Below are positions 1 through 5,681 of a DNA stretch of 5,681 bases, piece after piece. The stretch is from Nitrososphaerota archaeon (GTDB lineage: Archaea > Thermoproteota > Nitrososphaeria > Nitrososphaerales > UBA183), in assembly GCA_027886865.1 (NCBI GenBank), contig JAPCJR010000039.1, positions 1 through 5,681 of the forward strand. Reading direction: 5' to 3'. The notes under the pieces were generated by a model that worked only from the letters and a program-made list of their open reading frames with translations, did not search any database and was not told the DNA's origin. The translations under genes and the position numbers were made by a program. Within the stretch, counting starts at the first letter, position 1. Each line of letters begins with the position of its first letter.

Positions 1-111
1 TGGTATGTAGACAACCGAGAACTGATACCAGCCGACCGCGAAAAGTATGAGGAATAGCGGGGCTATGAGCCTGCTGTACCTGAACTTCTGTGTGGTGTTC
101 GGGGCTCTCAT
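1..111 (-). CDS. N-terminus of unknown membrane-anchored protein (partial, runs off the window)
   Basis: An uninterrupted 37-codon reading frame starts with ATG at 111 and continues past base 1, so only the N-terminus is visible. The ATG shares bases with the TGA stop of the YeeE gene (ATGA junction), a classic sign of translational coupling, and a GAGG (minus strand, bases 123-120) lies 8 bases before it. The peptide opens with a short basic stretch (MRAPNTTQKFRYSR) followed by a hydrophobic segment, about residues 15-36 (LIAPLFLILFAVGW and onward). This fits a signal anchor or first transmembrane helix with a cytoplasmic N-terminus. Family cannot be told from 37 residues. Its place as third gene after tusA and yeeE suggests a membrane or extracytoplasmic partner in sulfur uptake; that is inference. 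The alternative is a chance open stretch, made less likely by the ATGA junction, the ribosome-binding site and the well-formed anchor. Confidence 0.62.
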   Translation of the reverse strand, partial: MRAPNTTQKFRYSRLIAPLFLILFAVGWYQFSVVYIP

Positions 112-1367
112 ACCAGGTGCCTCTGGACCTTCACCGCGATCCACACCCCGAACAGCATCGAAAACAGGAACAATATCCCGTCGTAGCCGAGCTGCGCGAA
201 GTTGGTCCACATCAACCCGATGTTACAGCCCAGCGCCGTCCTCACGCCGATCCCGACCAGTATCCCGCCGGAGAACCCGGTGAATAGTCTCTTTCTCTGG
301 TGCGGCACCCTAACTTTGAAGTCTCCACTGAGGAGACTTGCGCTAAAGGCGCCGACGATAAGCATAACCACCATCAGCACGCTTGGATCGAGTATCGGGA
401 GGGCGTCGTTATACCACGGTGTATTGAGCGCGAGGTTGACGCCGAAGGGCATCAGGATGTACTCGAGGAACCTCCCGCCGTCGGACGACGTTATCACAAG
501 GTAGTTGAAAGTGTACCCAGCCCCCGCCACGAAGACCAGCGCGAGCGCCCCCGCTAGGATGAGGGTCGAGAGATTGGCGCCATAGGGCTTCCTCAGGAGC
601 AGCATCTCCTTCGCGTCGGACAAGCTGAGTCTCGCAGTCTGCATCCCGACAAGGGGGAAAGGGCCTACCCTTCCCGTCGACGCGGGCGCCGCCAGCGCGC
701 GCGACAGGTTCGTCCCGGAGATGCCTCCGAGCTGTGCCGACCGCTTCGAGCGAGTCTTCCGCTGGAGGAAAAGTCCTATGGCCACGAGCGGGAACCCGAG
801 AGCGACAGCGGTGATCCCTATCGAAATCTGCGAGACTGAGTGGAAGAGGTCATACGGCAGGTATTCAGTGTAAGCTCCGAGCTTCGTCGATAGTATCCCG
901 TTCGCCATCGTGAACGACTGGAAAGGCCAGATTGCGACGGCGAAGATGTAGGTGCCGACCATCATCCCGACTAGTTCGAGCCAGTTCTGGACGTATCCAC
1001 TCGCCGCCCTGTACAGCATCGAGAGGTTGCACCCGCCCGCCATGGTGGCTCCGAAGCCAAAGATGATAGCCCCGACCACGACATACCATCCGGAGAAGTA
1101 GTTGTCGTAGTACTGGTCGACCGCCGGCACTATCCCTGTTACGACCAGGAGCGCAGTCATTAGGGCGGAGATACCAAACAGGATCAGGAGGGCCCCGAAC
1201 CTGTCATAGCTCTTGGTGGTGAAGACCGAAGTCATCGCATTCACAAAGCAATAGTTCCCCCTTTGCGCCACCCATCCCAGGATGAAGCCACTCACGCCGA
1301 AAGCCGCGTATACGAAGACGAACCCAAAGGATAGCACCTGCTGCGGGAGCATCGGAGGAAGGGACAT
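108..1367 (-). CDS. yeeE: YeeE/YedE family (thiosulfate) transporter
   Basis: A 419-residue polytopic membrane protein of the YeeE/YedE (TsuA) family, whose characterised members import thiosulfate. Hydrophobic helices fill most of the chain, broken by a basic cytoplasmic-type loop around residues 200-265. The protein has exactly three cysteines, each in a family motif: C40 in QRGNYCFVNA, C113 in AGGCNLSML, and C381 in ALGCNIGLMW. In the structurally studied Spirochaeta thermophila YeeE, three conserved cysteines line the path along which thiosulfate is relayed, so the visible motifs support a working thiosulfate (or related sulfur-compound) channel. The length is at the long end of the family (about 330-420). 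The ATG at 1367 lies 4 bases after the tusA stop and is preceded by GGTGAG, so the two are coupled; the 3' end overlaps the next gene by ATGA. Substrate is inferred from family and from the adjacent TusA. Confidence 0.93.
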   Translation of the reverse strand: MSLPPMLPQQVLSFGFVFVYAAFGVSGFILGWVAQRGNYCFVNAMTSVFTTKSYDRFGALLILFGISALMTALLVVTGIVPAVDQYYDNYFSGWYVVVGAIIFGFGATMAGGCNLSMLYRAASGYVQNWLELVGMMVGTYIFAVAIWPFQSFTMANGILSTKLGAYTEYLPYDLFHSVSQISIGITAVALGFPLVAIGLFLQRKTRSKRSAQLGGISGTNLSRALAAPASTGRVGPFPLVGMQTARLSLSDAKEMLLLRKPYGANLSTLILAGALALVFVAGAGYTFNYLVITSSDGGRFLEYILMPFGVNLALNTPWYNDALPILDPSVLMVVMLIVGAFSASLLSGDFKVRVPHQRKRLFTGFSGGILVGIGVRTALGCNIGLMWTNFAQLGYDGILFLFSMLFGVWIAVKVQRHLV

Positions 1368-1818: not shown

Positions 1819-2535
1819 GTGACCAGCAAACGAGACAGTCTAGAGGTCGGATGGAGGGACATACCGGAGTCTCTGGGGGAGTGCAAAGGAGAGGATTTCC
1901 AGAGGGTCTTCGCCGAGGTAAGGAGCGTTATCTCTCACCAGCTGGGAAACAATTCGCTCAAAGGCATCAAGGGCTTCATCTTCTACGGGGAGCCGGGCAA
2001 TGGGAAGACTCTGATGGCCAAGGTGCTGGCCAAGGAGCTGCAGCTCTCGCTCTTCTTCGTGGATGGTTCAGTGATTGCGAGGGAGCTCTATGGGCAGTCA
2101 GAGCGCCAGATAGTGAAGGTCTTCTCCACGGCCGCCAAGAAGCGGTCGCTGATCCTCATCGACGATGCCGAGTCGGTCTTCCCGGACAGGGATTGGATGA
2201 AGGGTGAAAGCTGGCACGTGGCGCAGAACAACATCCTCTTCCACCAGATCGACGACCTAGACACCTCGCAGACCTCGCTCATAATGACGACCAACAAGTT
2301 CCAGCTCCTCGACAGCGCGCTGAAAGATAGGCTCTATGCGATTGAGTTTCCTCCCATCGACCAGAGAACCGCAATCGAGGTCGCGAGGATGAAGTGCGTC
2401 GAGAAGGGGATCGACGCGACTAGGGCGGAGGAGAGCATCCGGGCAGAGCCCGAGATGTTCAAGTCGGGTAGGGCGATAGAGAAGCTGGTCGTCAGGGAAT
2501 ATATCCGTCAGGTCAGCGATGGACGGCGCGAGTAG
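1819..2535 (+). CDS. Minimal single-domain AAA family ATPase
   Basis: A 238-residue protein consisting of little more than one AAA module. The module opens with GWRDIPES (residues 11-18), like the W-x-D-I entry of classic AAA domains. Walker A is G57-EPGNGK-T64. The pore-loop region is RELYGQSE (88-95) with aromatic Y91. Walker B is LILIDD (111-116), where the usual catalytic Glu is Asp116 and the classic DExD becomes DDAE. Sensor 1 is TTN (N159) and a single arginine-finger candidate is R171 in ALKDRL. A short helical lid contains SGRAIEKLV (216-224). There is no N-terminal substrate domain and no second ring, unlike Cdc48/VAT or proteasomal ATPases. The start is GTG; the frame is closed by TGA at 1792-1794 and no other start precedes it. 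An ATG at 1817 is out of frame and stops at once. The target is unknown; it could remodel one of the neighbouring proteins, which is inference. Confidence 0.92.
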   Translation: MTSKRDSLEVGWRDIPESLGECKGEDFQRVFAEVRSVISHQLGNNSLKGIKGFIFYGEPGNGKTLMAKVLAKELQLSLFFVDGSVIARELYGQSERQIVKVFSTAAKKRSLILIDDAESVFPDRDWMKGESWHVAQNNILFHQIDDLDTSQTSLIMTTNKFQLLDSALKDRLYAIEFPPIDQRTAIEVARMKCVEKGIDATRAEESIRAEPEMFKSGRAIEKLVVREYIRQVSDGRRE

Positions 2536-2600: not shown

Positions 2601-3281
2601 ATGTCCAGTTCAGATTTCAACAGTCTCGGAAGGAGGCTCGAGTCGGCCTTAGGGCTCTCGAAGCCAATAGTGGCGGTCTCCTTCAGCCCTGACACTACGA
2701 AGGTCCGGAGGTCGACCGATGTCGTGGAGTCGAGCTGTGTTTTCTGGACAAAGGCGCTTGATGGCGCCTTCTACACCACACCAGATCAGCACTTGCACTG
2801 CTCCGTCGGAGCGGTGACCCACGGCTACCGGGCAGCCAAAGACTCGCTCCCCGGCGCGGGCCTCGCGGACATCGACCTGCTGACGAGCGTAGGATGGATC
2901 GGAAAGAATGATATCTTGGGGTTGCCACACCTGCCCCTAGAAGCCCAACGGAACATCGGCTATGCCCCCCTTGACAACTCACCCTTTATCCCTGATGTTG
3001 TGTTGCTTTTTGTCGACTCACAACAAGCAGCGCTGATTAAGGAGGCTGCGCCCGACAGCAAGGTCACCGTGAAGCCGACCTGTCAGGGCCTCCCTCTGGC
3101 CAACGAGGGGGACGTCGTGATAGGGCTTGGGTGCACGGCGAGCAGGACGAGGTCCGGGTACGATGAGTCCGAGATAGTCGTGACCATCAACGCAAAGAAG
3201 CTCGCCGGCTTCGTCGAACGCTTGGAGAAGATAGCCAAGATCGACAACCAGGTCAAGGTGGCTCTAAGCCACGCCGCCTAA
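2601..3281 (+). CDS. DUF169 family protein (COG2043)
   Basis: A 226-residue cytoplasmic protein of the DUF169 family, common in archaea and anaerobes and without an established function that I know. Family marks seen: LGLSKPIVAVSF near the N-terminus (17-28), SSCVFWTKA with C46, FYTTPDQHLHCSVGA with H64, H66 and C67, a QQAALI helix after LLFVDS, PTCQGLPL with C161, and GLGCTASRTRSGYDESE with C178. These four cysteines are the only ones and all lie in conserved segments, so they may hold a metal or iron-sulfur site or carry redox chemistry; that is inference. There is no signal peptide or membrane helix. The ATG is fixed by the TATA box 29 bases upstream. The next gene follows after 61 bases without a visible promoter. 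Recognition of the family is by motif pattern, not by a search. Confidence 0.88.
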   Translation: MSSSDFNSLGRRLESALGLSKPIVAVSFSPDTTKVRRSTDVVESSCVFWTKALDGAFYTTPDQHLHCSVGAVTHGYRAAKDSLPGAGLADIDLLTSVGWIGKNDILGLPHLPLEAQRNIGYAPLDNSPFIPDVVLLFVDSQQAALIKEAAPDSKVTVKPTCQGLPLANEGDVVIGLGCTASRTRSGYDESEIVVTINAKKLAGFVERLEKIAKIDNQVKVALSHAA

Positions 3282-3342: not shown

Positions 3343-3990
3343 ATGACCTCGCTGATAGGCAAGGAGGACACTAAGGAGATTCGAACACTGTTCCGTTCTC
3401 AGCTCGAGAGTGAGGTCGATATCCTTCTCTTCACGTCGAAGGAGGCGTCCGTCTTTTGCGCACCGACGAAGCGGCTCCTCGAGGAGGTCGCCTCGCTCAC
3501 TGACAAGGTCAGGCTCCAGGTGCTCGATAACGATGAAGGGACTGCAAAGGCCGTCGAGATGGCGGTTGACCTCGCGCCTACCACCGTGGTCATTTCTTCC
3601 AACGGTGCAAAGCTGTACTTCGTCGGGATTCCCGCGGGACGTCAACTAAAGTGCCTTGTGGAGGACATAGTAGACTCCTCTCGAGGCCGAACTCAGATGG
3701 ACGAACAGACCCGGCGCATCATCAGGCGCGTAACCGTGCCGACAATCATAAGGGTCTTCGTCACGACCTTCTGCCCATACTCGCCTCTCGTGGTCCGTTC
3801 CGCGCATCGGTTCGCCCTCGAGAACCCCATGATACGCGCCCTCATGGTCGAGACTGCGGAGTTCCCCGAGCTCACTAAGAGATACAACGTTGTGGGGGTG
3901 CCCCGGACCGTCATAAACGACAGGCTTCAGTTCGACGGCGCCCCTAGCGAAGAGGCCTTCGCGACGAAGGTCCTAGAAGCCTCGATGTAA
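3343..3990 (+). CDS. PDO-like double-thioredoxin protein with both CxxC sites reduced to one cysteine
   Basis: A 215-residue protein that matches the archaeal protein disulfide oxidoreductase (PDO) plan: two thioredoxin folds in tandem. Module 1 has strand DILLFTS (26-32), the active-site loop S36-V-F-C39 followed by the helix APTKRLLEEV, and the cis-Pro loop LAPTTVV (P79). Module 2 has strand RVFVTTF, the active-site loop C144-P-Y-S147, and the cis-Pro loop GVPRTVIND (P187). In normal PDOs both loops are CxxC, for example CQYC and CPYC. Here the first has lost its N-terminal Cys and the second its C-terminal Cys. Two motif cysteines and C104 remain. Standard dithiol oxidoreductase activity within each module is therefore unlikely; monothiol glutaredoxin-like, mixed-disulfide or persulfide chemistry is possible. 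No signal peptide is seen, so it is cytoplasmic. GAGG precedes the ATG by 9 bases and the gene probably shares the DUF169 transcript. Confidence 0.86.
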   Translation: MTSLIGKEDTKEIRTLFRSQLESEVDILLFTSKEASVFCAPTKRLLEEVASLTDKVRLQVLDNDEGTAKAVEMAVDLAPTTVVISSNGAKLYFVGIPAGRQLKCLVEDIVDSSRGRTQMDEQTRRIIRRVTVPTIIRVFVTTFCPYSPLVVRSAHRFALENPMIRALMVETAEFPELTKRYNVVGVPRTVINDRLQFDGAPSEEAFATKVLEASM

Positions 3991-4135: not shown

Positions 4136-5476
4136 TTGAGAACCGCAGTCACCAGGAATACTACTGTAATCATCGTCGCGGTCATCGTGGTCATAATTCT
4201 CGTGTCATACACTGCATTATCGGTACTGTCTCCTGCCACGTCATCTTCGACGACGTCGGCTTCGAGCGCAGCTACGTCCTCTGCACCTCCGTCGACCCTC
4301 ACGAGCACGGCAGGTTCAATCACGTCTAGCTCGGGTAGCGCGACCTCGACAATCTCTACTGGCTATTCAGGCTCAGTTACGTCTAGCTCAGACAGCACGA
4401 CCTCAACCATCACTACAAGCTATACGGGCAACAACGACTACTACCTCTTGGCGTTCATGCAGAAGGGTGTGGTGGAACTCATTTCGCCTACAAGCGGCTC
4501 CGTGCTCGGCTATCTTCGACTGTTCAATATTTCTGACAGCGTTTCAGTTCAGACGTCCAACTGGGAGACGTATCCTGTCCAGGGGGTTACCGCCCAGAAC
4601 GTGGTGTTCCCGCTGACCAATGGGACGTTCATAGTGACCGATACGTCACAGTTGAATGTCGAGTCGCGGTTGAGCCTCGGCACGACGGTCGGGTACACGG
4701 GTGTGACGGTATCACCTAACGAGAAGACAGCCGTCCTCATCGACGGACCCTCCGGCATCGTCGAGCTTCTGAACCTGACCACCCTCCAGACAGTATGGAA
4801 GGTGACCTTCAATACGCCCGCCGGAATGAATGCCTATCCGTCCGACGCGAGATGGTCCCCCGACGGGAGCACGATAGTCGTGCCGCTGACGGACAATAAC
4901 TCGATAGACATCCTGAGCGCCGGGACAGGCCAGATCGAGCAGGAGACTTCGTTGACCTCTGGATCGCCCACAATGGTCGCGATAAACGGCCAGGGTAACA
5001 AGCTCGGCGTGGAGCTCGGCAACAAGACTGACCTATTCTACTCTTATCCTGCTCTGAAACTCCTTGGGTCGGTTAGCTTCACGGGTTCCAGCATGTCGCC
5101 GACGCGTGGCGTCTTTACGCCTGACGGGGAGTACTACCTCGAGGCCTCCGGCACATCAAACTCGGTGGCGGTGATATCGCTGAACCAGTTCAAGGTCATG
5201 AACACGATCAATCTGCCGCAGTCGTCAGCCCCGGGCCTGGCAAACATGCAGATCACTCCTGACGGCAACTATGTCTACGTGAACCAACCTGGCAACCCGG
5301 CAACAGGTGGCATAATCTACATGTTCTCGCTCTCAAACATAGCCACGGCAAGCGGGGCCGCGGTAAGCGTCCCGATGACAACGGCCCCCTCGTTTGCCAT
5401 CCCCATATCGATGACTCTTGGCAACTACCTAGCGGACAACGTACTCCTACCGCCTGTTACAGGGTTGCACTGTTAG
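4136..5476 (+). CDS. Membrane-anchored surface protein: Ser/Thr-rich stalk and seven-bladed beta-propeller
   Basis: A 446-residue extracytoplasmic protein. Residues 1-9 are short and basic; about 10-31 (VIIVAVIVVIILV core) form one hydrophobic helix, a signal anchor or signal peptide. Residues 32-100 are a Ser/Thr/Ala-rich stalk, probably O-glycosylated, with a 19-residue duplication at 63-100. Residues 101-446 look like a beta-propeller with about seven blades of the YVTN/WD-like type; the turn signature is seen as SPNE, S241-PDG, T328-PDG and T374-PDG. Several N-glycosylation sequons (N131-I-S, N162-G-T and others) suit an archaeal surface protein. The only cysteine is the last residue. The start is TTG: an in-frame stop lies at 4115-4117 and no ATG or GTG comes before the hydrophobic helix. 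It is transcribed separately from the genes to its left. Ligand and role are unknown; binding or S-layer association is plausible. Confidence 0.86.
   Translation: MRTAVTRNTTVIIVAVIVVIILVSYTALSVLSPATSSSTTSASSAATSSAPPSTLTSTAGSITSSSGSATSTISTGYSGSVTSSSDSTTSTITTSYTGNNDYYLLAFMQKGVVELISPTSGSVLGYLRLFNISDSVSVQTSNWETYPVQGVTAQNVVFPLTNGTFIVTDTSQLNVESRLSLGTTVGYTGVTVSPNEKTAVLIDGPSGIVELLNLTTLQTVWKVTFNTPAGMNAYPSDARWSPDGSTIVVPLTDNNSIDILSAGTGQIEQETSLTSGSPTMVAINGQGNKLGVELGNKTDLFYSYPALKLLGSVSFTGSSMSPTRGVFTPDGEYYLEASGTSNSVAVISLNQFKVMNTINLPQSSAPGLANMQITPDGNYVYVNQPGNPATGGIIYMFSLSNIATASGAAVSVPMTTAPSFAIPISMTLGNYLADNVLLPPVTGLHC
4322..4435 (+). repeat. Tandem 57-base duplication in the Ser/Thr stalk
   Basis: Two adjacent units (4322-4378 and 4379-4435) start with the same ACGTCTAGCTC and encode TSSSGSATSTISTGYSGSV and TSSSDSTTSTITTSYTGNN. 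The period is exactly 19 codons, so the frame is kept. The units have diverged at many third positions, indicating an older duplication that lengthened the stalk. Confidence 0.8.
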
Positions 5477-5645
5477 AGAAAGTGCGGGAACGCGGGACGG
5501 GAGTCGCTGCCTCTGACTCACTTTACCTCGATTAAACTCGCAGAGATGGACGTAATTGGAGTGTGCATGCGAACCGATGCAATCTCCCAAGCATCAATCG
5601 TCGCCACCTTAAGGAGCCTCGATATCTCCGAAGAAACATGAATTG
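5477..5645. other. Intergenic stretch downstream of the beta-propeller gene
   Basis: I see no convincing gene here. After the stop there is a small stem, GAGTC (5501-5505) with GACTC (5515-5519), inside weaker outer pairing of AAAGTG with CACTTT, possibly marking the transcript 3' end, though no T-run follows. Further on GATGC (5576-5580) and GCATC (5591-5595) form another 5-base stem. The stretch becomes more A/T-rich toward its end, as expected of a promoter region for a gene beyond the window. Confidence 0.35.
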
Positions 5646-5681
5646 TCCGAATAAGTTATGAAGTCCGAATAAGTTATGAAG
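5646..5681. repeat. Tandem 18-base direct repeat at the window edge
   Basis: TCCGAATAAGTTATGAAG occurs twice in a row, without mismatch, up to the last base. A degenerate trace (ATGAA, then CCGAATAAG) just before suggests the array once had more units. It may continue beyond the window, or the sequence may end there because a repeat broke the assembly. Confidence 0.8.

What the first reader, a model, noticed from the sequence alone, without database searches (positions are those of the whole stretch)
3343..3990. PDO-like protein with mirror-image loss of one cysteine in each CxxC site
The two thioredoxin modules carry SVFC (36-39) and CPYS (144-147) where archaeal PDOs carry CxxC. Module 1 keeps only the resolving position and module 2 only the nucleophile position, while both cis-Pro loops and the fold pattern stay intact, so this is not simple decay. 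Such a protein could form mixed disulfides, pass persulfide sulfur, or bind a cluster between subunits. Together with TusA and YeeE nearby, a sulfur-relay role is an attractive idea. The cysteine losses are seen directly; the chemistry is inference.
Basis: partly seen in the sequence, partly recalled or inferred. Interest (0 to 1): 0.72.

Follow-up and report, generated by a model that had tools for sequence, protein, structure and literature searches.

The report
Single-cysteine redox protein in sulfur-import cluster
This archaeal two-part redox protein belongs to a lineage that gave up one cysteine of its main active site and keeps losing the other site piecemeal, and it sits with genes for importing and carrying sulfur, so it may be a protein that takes sulfur over inside the cell.

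Summary
In detail: ORF 3343-3990 is a PDO-family protein (TIGR02187 above cut-off; fold closest to 1a8l) with SVFC at 36-39 and CPYS at 144-147. The reading as one "mirror-image" design is not. Of 123 relatives collected, 68 have C144 with S147; the 65 of them put on a tree lie on one side of a branch (100/100), so CPYS is an old, constrained state. Module 1 differs: 49 of 65 readable rows keep CxxC, among them three of the window's four closest relatives; 16 (the window included) have lost one or both cysteines, in at least 13 changes. Four rows have C144 as their only cysteine. SVFC is thus a local loss; C144 is the likely working residue. In genomes the CPYS protein sits in a conserved cluster with YeeE, TusA, AAA ATPase, DUF169 and an exported-looking beta-propeller. 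In 400 genomes of the order, the three with CPYS are the three with the cluster's membrane protein; 15 carry CPYC PDOs. Best reading: a monothiol PDO that takes sulfur or a thiosulfonate from TusA after YeeE import. The chemistry is inferred. New variant of a known kind.

The parts
3343..3990 (+). PDO-family protein, 215 aa, two thioredoxin modules
3448..3459 (+). module-1 site SVFC (residues 36-39); nucleophile cysteine lost in this lineage
3577..3579 (+). cis-Pro P79 of module 1, invariant in 68 CxxS rows
3652..3654 (+). C104, a third cysteine; Cys at this place in 46% of 68 CxxS rows
3772..3783 (+). module-2 site CPYS (residues 144-147), shared as CxxS by 68 of the 123 proteins collected
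3901..3903 (+). cis-Pro P187 of module 2, invariant in 67 CxxS rows
2601..3281 (+). DUF169 protein, 226 aa, four cysteines
1819..2535 (+). small AAA ATPase, 238 aa
1372..1677 (-). TusA-like sulfur carrier; lone cysteine C40 in CPIP
108..1367 (-). YeeE/YedE-family sulfur transporter, 419 aa, cysteines 40, 113, 381
1..210 (-). partial frame holding the start of a small membrane protein, overlapping the end of YeeE; conserved neighbour
4136..5476 (+). exported-looking beta-propeller with N-terminal membrane anchor (by eye); its only cysteine is the last residue (GLHC)

Best explanation
It is a cluster-borne, monothiol offshoot of the archaeal PDO family. The ancestor of the offshoot changed the module-2 site from CPYC to CPYS once and kept it; module 1 is optional and has lost its cysteines many times, the window's SVFC being one recent case. 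Likely work: after YeeE brings thiosulfate (or sulfane sulfur) in and TusA takes it on C40, C144 of the PDO attacks the TusA-bound sulfane or thiosulfonate and takes over the sulfur as a persulfide or mixed disulfide. With no C147 to resolve it, the sulfur is not reduced off on the spot but handed to a low-molecular-weight thiol or to a partner (DUF169 is the first candidate). SHOWN: one-branch CxxS group, constant C144/S147 in it, recurrent module-1 loss, gene cluster. INFERRED: cytoplasmic site (no export signal seen by eye; no predictor run), TusA as partner, direction of transfer, DUF169 as acceptor.
For: C144 with S147 in 68 rows, CxxC in the other 54 readable of 123; CxxS one side of a branch, 100/100, with 65 of 68 CxxS and 15 of 54 CxxC rows in the tree. 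Module 1 lost in 16 of 65 readable rows, at least 13 changes among the 64 readable in the tree; four rows have C144 only. Cluster: YeeE, TusA, AAA, DUF169, PDO and beta-propeller all present in the window, in G001 and G008 (same order) and in G417 (rearranged). In 400 genomes of the order: 24 PDO matches, 18 strong ones read: 3 CPYS, 15 CPYC; the cluster's CCLTP membrane protein matches in 3 of 400, the same 3 (same settings, taken to be the same draw). By equal contig length, 20 of 45 CxxS relatives on contigs over 2 kb appear to share a contig with that membrane protein, 0 of 36 CxxC (lengths; two of the 20 are confirmed by sequence, G008 and G417). Literature: YeeE needs a TusA-family partner, and its electron route and sulfur acceptors are called unknown (PMC11073785, abstract and Discussion); thiol-disulfide oxidoreductases lie near YeeE-like SoxT genes (PMC11582611, passages).
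Against: No biochemical evidence for transfer from TusA to this protein. The core beta-propeller, membrane protein, TusA and YeeE exist without PDO, AAA or DUF169 (E 1e-3) in 8 of 8 loci fetched from other genomes of the phylum, so PDO is not needed for the core. Only three draft genomes with CPYS were found. DUF169 of G417 is only 36% identical and may not be the same gene. PDO is less conserved than YeeE, AAA and DUF169 in these loci. Module-1 loss is not peculiar to CxxS proteins: 18 of 79 CPYC-type genome loci also lack a module-1 cysteine in pairwise alignment, several of them evident alignment slips, so it need not follow from CPYS.
Confidence: 0.42

Rival explanations
1. Monothiol-glutaredoxin-like function: C144 with a low-molecular-weight thiol reduces mixed disulfides, or two subunits bind a cluster or metal between their C144 residues. 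Sulfur carriage from TusA is not involved.
For: CPYS is the site of yeast Grx7 (recalled; PMC7138851 seen in listings only); Grx6 holds a 2Fe-2S cluster with one active-site Cys per subunit and external glutathione (PMC5053157, start of abstract in listing). Module 2 is more conserved than module 1 in CxxS rows (mean top-residue fraction 0.743 against 0.662).
Against: The neighbours are a sulfur transporter and TusA, not Fe-S or thiol-repair genes. Glutathione-binding residues were not tested. The P. horikoshii glutaredoxin-like protein is reported to have thioredoxin but no glutaredoxin activity (PMC7278568, passage).
Confidence: 0.2
2. Relaxed selection: the cluster no longer needs PDO chemistry; module 1 is decaying now and module 2 will follow.
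For: PDO is less conserved than AAA, DUF169 and YeeE (76/64% against 82-87%); module 1 lost in 16 of 65 rows; window-G001 dN/dS 0.37 in module 1 against 0.12 in module 2.
Against: C144, S147 and P148 are constant in 68 rows, with 15 invariant columns in all (C144 and S147 define the set, P148 does not); dN/dS 0.19-0.25 for the whole gene; window-G008 modules do not differ (0.17 and 0.20); module 2 is as conserved in the 16 module-1-lost rows (0.756) as overall (0.743); TusA is no better conserved (69/64%).
Confidence: 0.17
3. One reading: C39 and C144 form a working pair across modules (mixed disulfide, persulfide relay or shared cluster) in this protein.
For: Both cysteines and both cis-prolines are present; SxxC occurs also in P0018 and P0025, and loss of the first cysteine alone is the commonest pattern, 8 of 16.
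Against: Three of the four closest relatives have CxxC in module 1 and the fourth (P0012) lost the second cysteine instead; 7 of 16 losses remove both; four rows keep C144 alone. The distance was not measured.
Confidence: 0.06
4. S36 is a sequencing or assembly error in one metagenome contig.
For: One member sequence, one contig; no reads to check.
Against: TCC against TGT in G001 is two base differences, and residues around the site have also changed (EASVFCAPT against HGCLFCDQS); comparable losses occur in 15 other rows.
Confidence: 0.05

Closest known systems
Archaeal/bacterial protein disulfide oxidoreductase (TIGR02187; P. furiosus 1a8l, P. horikoshii 1j08, A. pernix 2hls, Aquifex 2ayt)
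   Same: Two fused thioredoxin modules, same fold (TM 0.94 to 1a8l), both cis-Pro loops, curated HMM cut-off passed.
   Different: Neither CxxC site is intact; module 2 is CxxS in its whole branch; sits in a YeeE/TusA cluster.
Monothiol glutaredoxins with CPYS/CSYS sites (yeast Grx6/Grx7 type; recalled, papers seen in listings only)
   Same: Single nucleophile with Ser in the resolving place.
   Different: Two-module PDO fold; glutathione site not shown; Pfam Glutaredoxin below its cut-off.
AhpF N-terminal domain (1zyn, 1hyu, 4xvg)
   Same: Two thioredoxin modules of which the first has no working site (recalled for AhpF).
   Different: AhpF keeps CxxC in the second module and is fused to a reductase (recalled); identity 19-24%.
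YeeE-YeeD (TsuA-TsuB) thiosulfate uptake and SoxT (PMC11073785, PMC11582611)
   Same: YeeE-family transporter encoded beside a TusA-family protein with one CPxP cysteine.
   Different: Here AAA, DUF169, monothiol PDO and an exported-looking beta-propeller are added; NCBIfam TsuA cut-offs are not reached.
Sulfur gene sets of Metallosphaera-type genomes (yeeE is sulfur-induced in Sulfolobaceae, PMC11323534)
   Same: Beta-propeller, CCLTP membrane protein, TusA and YeeE in 8 of 8 loci fetched.
   Different: Those loci show no PDO, AAA or DUF169 at E 1e-3.

Membership tests
TIGR02187 protein disulfide oxidoreductase (homology) | Whole-protein score over the curated cut-off | tested here: met
   204.2 bits, cut-off 185
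TIGR02187 protein disulfide oxidoreductase (homology) | Two tandem thioredoxin modules in the PDO arrangement | tested here: met
   pLDDT 94.7; TM 0.94 to 1a8l over 227 alignment columns
Canonical dithiol PDO enzyme | CxxC in both modules | tested here: not met
   SVFC and CPYS
Canonical dithiol PDO enzyme | Disulfide reductase/isomerase activity, reduced by thioredoxin reductase | not testable with these tools
   needs purified protein
Class II monothiol glutaredoxin | CGFS site | tested here: not met
   site is CPYS; CGFS in 0 of 68 CxxS rows
CPYS-type monothiol glutaredoxin | CxxS site in a glutaredoxin domain | tested here: inconclusive
   CPYS present, but Pfam Glutaredoxin 20.9 bits is below its cut-off 22.9
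CPYS-type monothiol glutaredoxin | Glutathione-binding residues and activity | not tested
   no call
TsuA/TsuB thiosulfate uptake | YeeE-family transporter beside a TusA-family protein | tested here: met
   PF04143 169.7 bits; PF01206 59.8 bits; adjacent genes
TsuA/TsuB thiosulfate uptake | NCBIfam TsuA curated cut-offs | tested here: not met
   76.8 of 645 and 75.8 of 400 bits; substrate therefore open

The most novel reading that the evidence does not exclude
The cluster is an archaeal sulfur relay made of single cysteines end to end: an exported beta-propeller whose last residue is its only cysteine (GLHC) carries sulfur like SoxY's C-terminal arm, passes it to the three cysteines of YeeE, then to TusA C40, then to C144 of a PDO that gave up its resolving cysteine so as to carry sulfur rather than reduce disulfides. 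In Nitrososphaerales the PDO, DUF169 and AAA replace the cytoplasmic sHdr route of sulfur-oxidising Sulfolobales.
Probability: 0.2. Interest if true: 0.82.

Novelty: new variant of a known kind. Interest (0 to 1): 0.52.

Why it matters
The authors of the YeeE-YeeD study state that the electron route and the proteins that take sulfur from YeeD are unknown (PMC11073785, Discussion). A redox-fold protein with one constant cysteine that stays with YeeE and TusA through gene rearrangement is a concrete candidate. It would also show a disulfide oxidoreductase turned into a sulfur carrier by fixing a single Cys-to-Ser change, with natural variants (module-1-free, C144-only) ready for testing.

Tried and rejected
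A paired C39/C144 design: rejected because module 1 varies freely among relatives. Sequencing error: judged unlikely. Own-genome search: none held. DUF169 literature: nothing on function in the passages read; one entry in a STRING table of a selenium study and one in a nitrate-fitness table; the PH-domain paper was a false hit on DUF1696. AAA relatives at 48-49% in G010 and G004 have none of the other cluster genes within the 13 kb fetched (G010 frames read) and were dropped. DUF169 relatives at 36-47% in G013, G014, G015 and G033 were not followed. The cluster membrane protein was modelled but too poorly (pLDDT 69.6), so no fold search was run on it. Beta-propeller against PDB sequences: weak repeat-type matches only. 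A link to N2O reductase, suggested by a weak NCBIfam hit, was dropped because the protein has one histidine. sHdr check with PF02754: hits in all 6 genomes searched, but paired domains in open frames of 292-320 aa only in the three Metallosphaera-type ones, against 422-687 aa in G001, G008 and G417; draft genomes, so weak. Literature searches for a CPYS PDO, for the cluster and for a C-terminal-cysteine carrier listed no paper that I recognised as describing them; most listed papers were seen as listing only.

Full report
WHAT IS THERE. The ORF at 3343-3990 encodes a 215-aa protein of the PDO family: TIGR02187 at 204.2 bits against a cut-off of 185, P. furiosus PDO 1a8l at E 2.2e-39, an AlphaFold2 model of mean pLDDT 94.7 whose best PDB match is 1a8l at TM 0.94. 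Its module-1 site reads SVFC and its module-2 site CPYS, as the finding says. There is a third cysteine, C104.

THE TWO SITES HAVE DIFFERENT HISTORIES. Two searches gave 123 proteins including the window's own; one search listed 120 of its 216 hits, so 96 were not seen, and its query was drawn from CxxS rows. Of the 123, 68 have C144 with S147, 54 have CxxC, and one (P0047, a fragment) lacks that region. A tree of 65 CxxS rows (P0049, P0073 and P0074 left out as short) and 15 of the 54 CxxC rows, built with both motif regions masked, puts all 65 CxxS rows on one side of a branch with 100/100 support; the other 39 CxxC rows were not placed. In the sampled set CPYC thus changed to CPYS once and shows no return. 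Among the 68 rows 15 columns are invariant, C144, S147 and P148 included (the first two define the set).

Module 1 tells another story. Of 65 CxxS rows where the site can be read, the window included, 49 have CxxC; 8 have lost the first cysteine, 1 the second, 7 both. On the tree (64 readable rows, 16 of them losses) this needs at least 13 changes (the 14 wrongly counted the fragment P0075). The window's closest relatives are P0002, P0003 and P0004 (76-80% identity) with CLLC, CPLC and CLFC, and P0012 (81% over 87% of the length, 188 aa) with CLLY. P0041, P0044, P0046 and P0071 have no cysteine except C144. The likely order is: resolving cysteine of module 2 replaced in the ancestor; module-1 cysteines lost again and again later. 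The counts cannot by themselves tell loss from gain, but CxxC is the module-1 state of 53 of 54 CxxC-type rows. Module-1 loss is not peculiar to this branch: of 80 loci from named genomes, 1 has CPYS, 77 CPYC and 2 a stop in place of the nucleophile (*PYC); of those other 79, 18 lack a module-1 cysteine in pairwise alignment, some through evident alignment slips such as L010, L021, L029, L042 and L052.

IS IT DECAYING? Against the two genomes with the same locus the gene shows dN/dS 0.19-0.25. Module 1 stands at 0.37 and module 2 at 0.12 for window against G001; for window against G008 the modules do not differ (0.17 and 0.20), and synonymous sites are near saturation in many comparisons. Identity of the window's protein to G001 and G008 is 76 and 64% for PDO, against 82/82 for YeeE, 87/84 for AAA and 86/83 for DUF169, but 69/64 for TusA and 83/57 for the beta-propeller. 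Purifying selection with a freer module 1 fits best.

THE CLUSTER. Besides PDO the window holds a YeeE-family transporter (PF04143) and a TusA-like protein on the minus strand, and a small AAA ATPase, a DUF169 protein and an exported-looking beta-propeller on the plus strand. G001 (Nitrososphaerales archaeon JOPF037, L001) and G008 (L112) have the same genes in the same order; G417 (L138) has all of them within 8 kb in another order, with PDO at 48% identity, DUF169 at 36%, and GQYC/CPYS sites. Three further neighbours recur in those three genomes: a small membrane protein, a 300-aa membrane protein, and a 303-aa membrane protein with a CCLTP stretch conserved in at least 90% of 42 relatives. 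The last two have no Pfam match at E 0.01.

CO-OCCURRENCE. In 400 genomes of the order PDO matches number 24, 18 of them at E below 1e-29; of these 18, three have CPYS (G001, G008, G417) and 15 CPYC; the six weak ones were not read. The CCLTP membrane protein matches in 3 of 400, the same three (same settings, taken to be the same draw). Within G001's family CPYS occurs in 2 of 46 genomes, and AAA and DUF169 relatives over 80% identical occur in those two only; weaker ones occur elsewhere (DUF169 at 36-47% in four genomes, a similar AAA at 48-54% in three). G002 of the same family has a CPYC PDO and no DUF169 match. Metagenome contigs point the same way: by equal contig length, 20 of 45 CxxS relatives on contigs over 2 kb appear to share a contig with the CCLTP protein, against 0 of 36 CxxC relatives (lengths). 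Equal length is only a pointer; for P0036 (G008) and P0068 (G417) the sequence confirms it. None of these counts are independent events.

WIDER CORE. A phylum search with the Metallosphaera hakonensis version of the CCLTP protein (P0192) matched 19 of 398 genomes, G001 and two weak hits included. I fetched eight of the other 16 loci: all eight hold YeeE, TusA, the beta-propeller and the small membrane protein within 16 kb, and none shows PDO, AAA or DUF169 at E 1e-3. Transporter, TusA, beta-propeller and CCLTP protein thus look like the shared core, and PDO-CPYS with AAA and DUF169 like the addition on the Nitrososphaerales side. In Sulfolobaceae a yeeE gene is 211-fold induced on sulfur in A. 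brierleyi and is reported in all strong sulfur oxidisers (PMC11323534, passages and one section). The beta-propeller ends in P[VI][TS]GLHC in 12 of 12 loci, and in the window that cysteine is its only one; a second copy in G001 lacks it.

HOW IT MAY WORK. In YeeE-YeeD the TusA-like partner takes thiosulfate on its conserved cysteine and shows thiosulfonate and persulfide forms; the reductant and the next acceptor are stated as unknown (PMC11073785, Discussion). A thioredoxin-fold protein with one nucleophilic cysteine and no resolving one is suited to attack such a sulfur and hold it. That C144 does this with TusA C40 is inference from gene context and site chemistry. A glutaredoxin-like or cluster-binding role of the same cysteine is the main rival.

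VERDICT. What is new, as far as my searches show, is a PDO lineage defined by CPYS and tied to a sulfur-import cluster: a new variant of a known kind.

Noticed in passing
window 4136-5476 and L112, L113, L138, L190-L197: The exported-looking beta-propeller ends in P[VI][TS]GLHC at its last residue in 12 of 12 loci; in the window it is the only cysteine. A possible C-terminal sulfur-carrying arm, like SoxY's (recalled).
   Followed up: partly
L112:11996-12907, L001:8191-9099, L138:7636-8544, L190:7445-8362: Membrane protein with a conserved CCLTP stretch, no Pfam match where tested, found with the cluster in the genomes examined and also in Metallosphaera-type genomes.
   Followed up: partly
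L190:6925-7464: A 179-aa membrane protein that looks DoxX/DoxD-like (by eye, recalled) lies between the CCLTP protein and TusA.
   Followed up: no
L017, L031: PDO with an in-frame stop in place of the module-2 nucleophile (*PYC) in Tepidibacillus decaturensis and Alicyclobacillus ferrooxydans, probably selenocysteine.
   Followed up: no
L006, L011, L019, L037, L038, L053, L059, L061, L065, L072: CPYC-type PDOs of Aminicenantes, Caldisericales and others also appear to have lost module-1 cysteines (PLFC, SQYL, DELA and the like; pairwise alignment only).
   Followed up: no
L001:6906-8171: G001 carries a second beta-propeller copy (48% identity) that lacks the terminal GLHC and ends GQQG.
   Followed up: no
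window 5645-5681: The contig ends in two head-to-tail copies of an 18-base unit (tccgaataagttatgaag), perhaps an assembly-end artefact or a short repeat (by eye).
   Followed up: no
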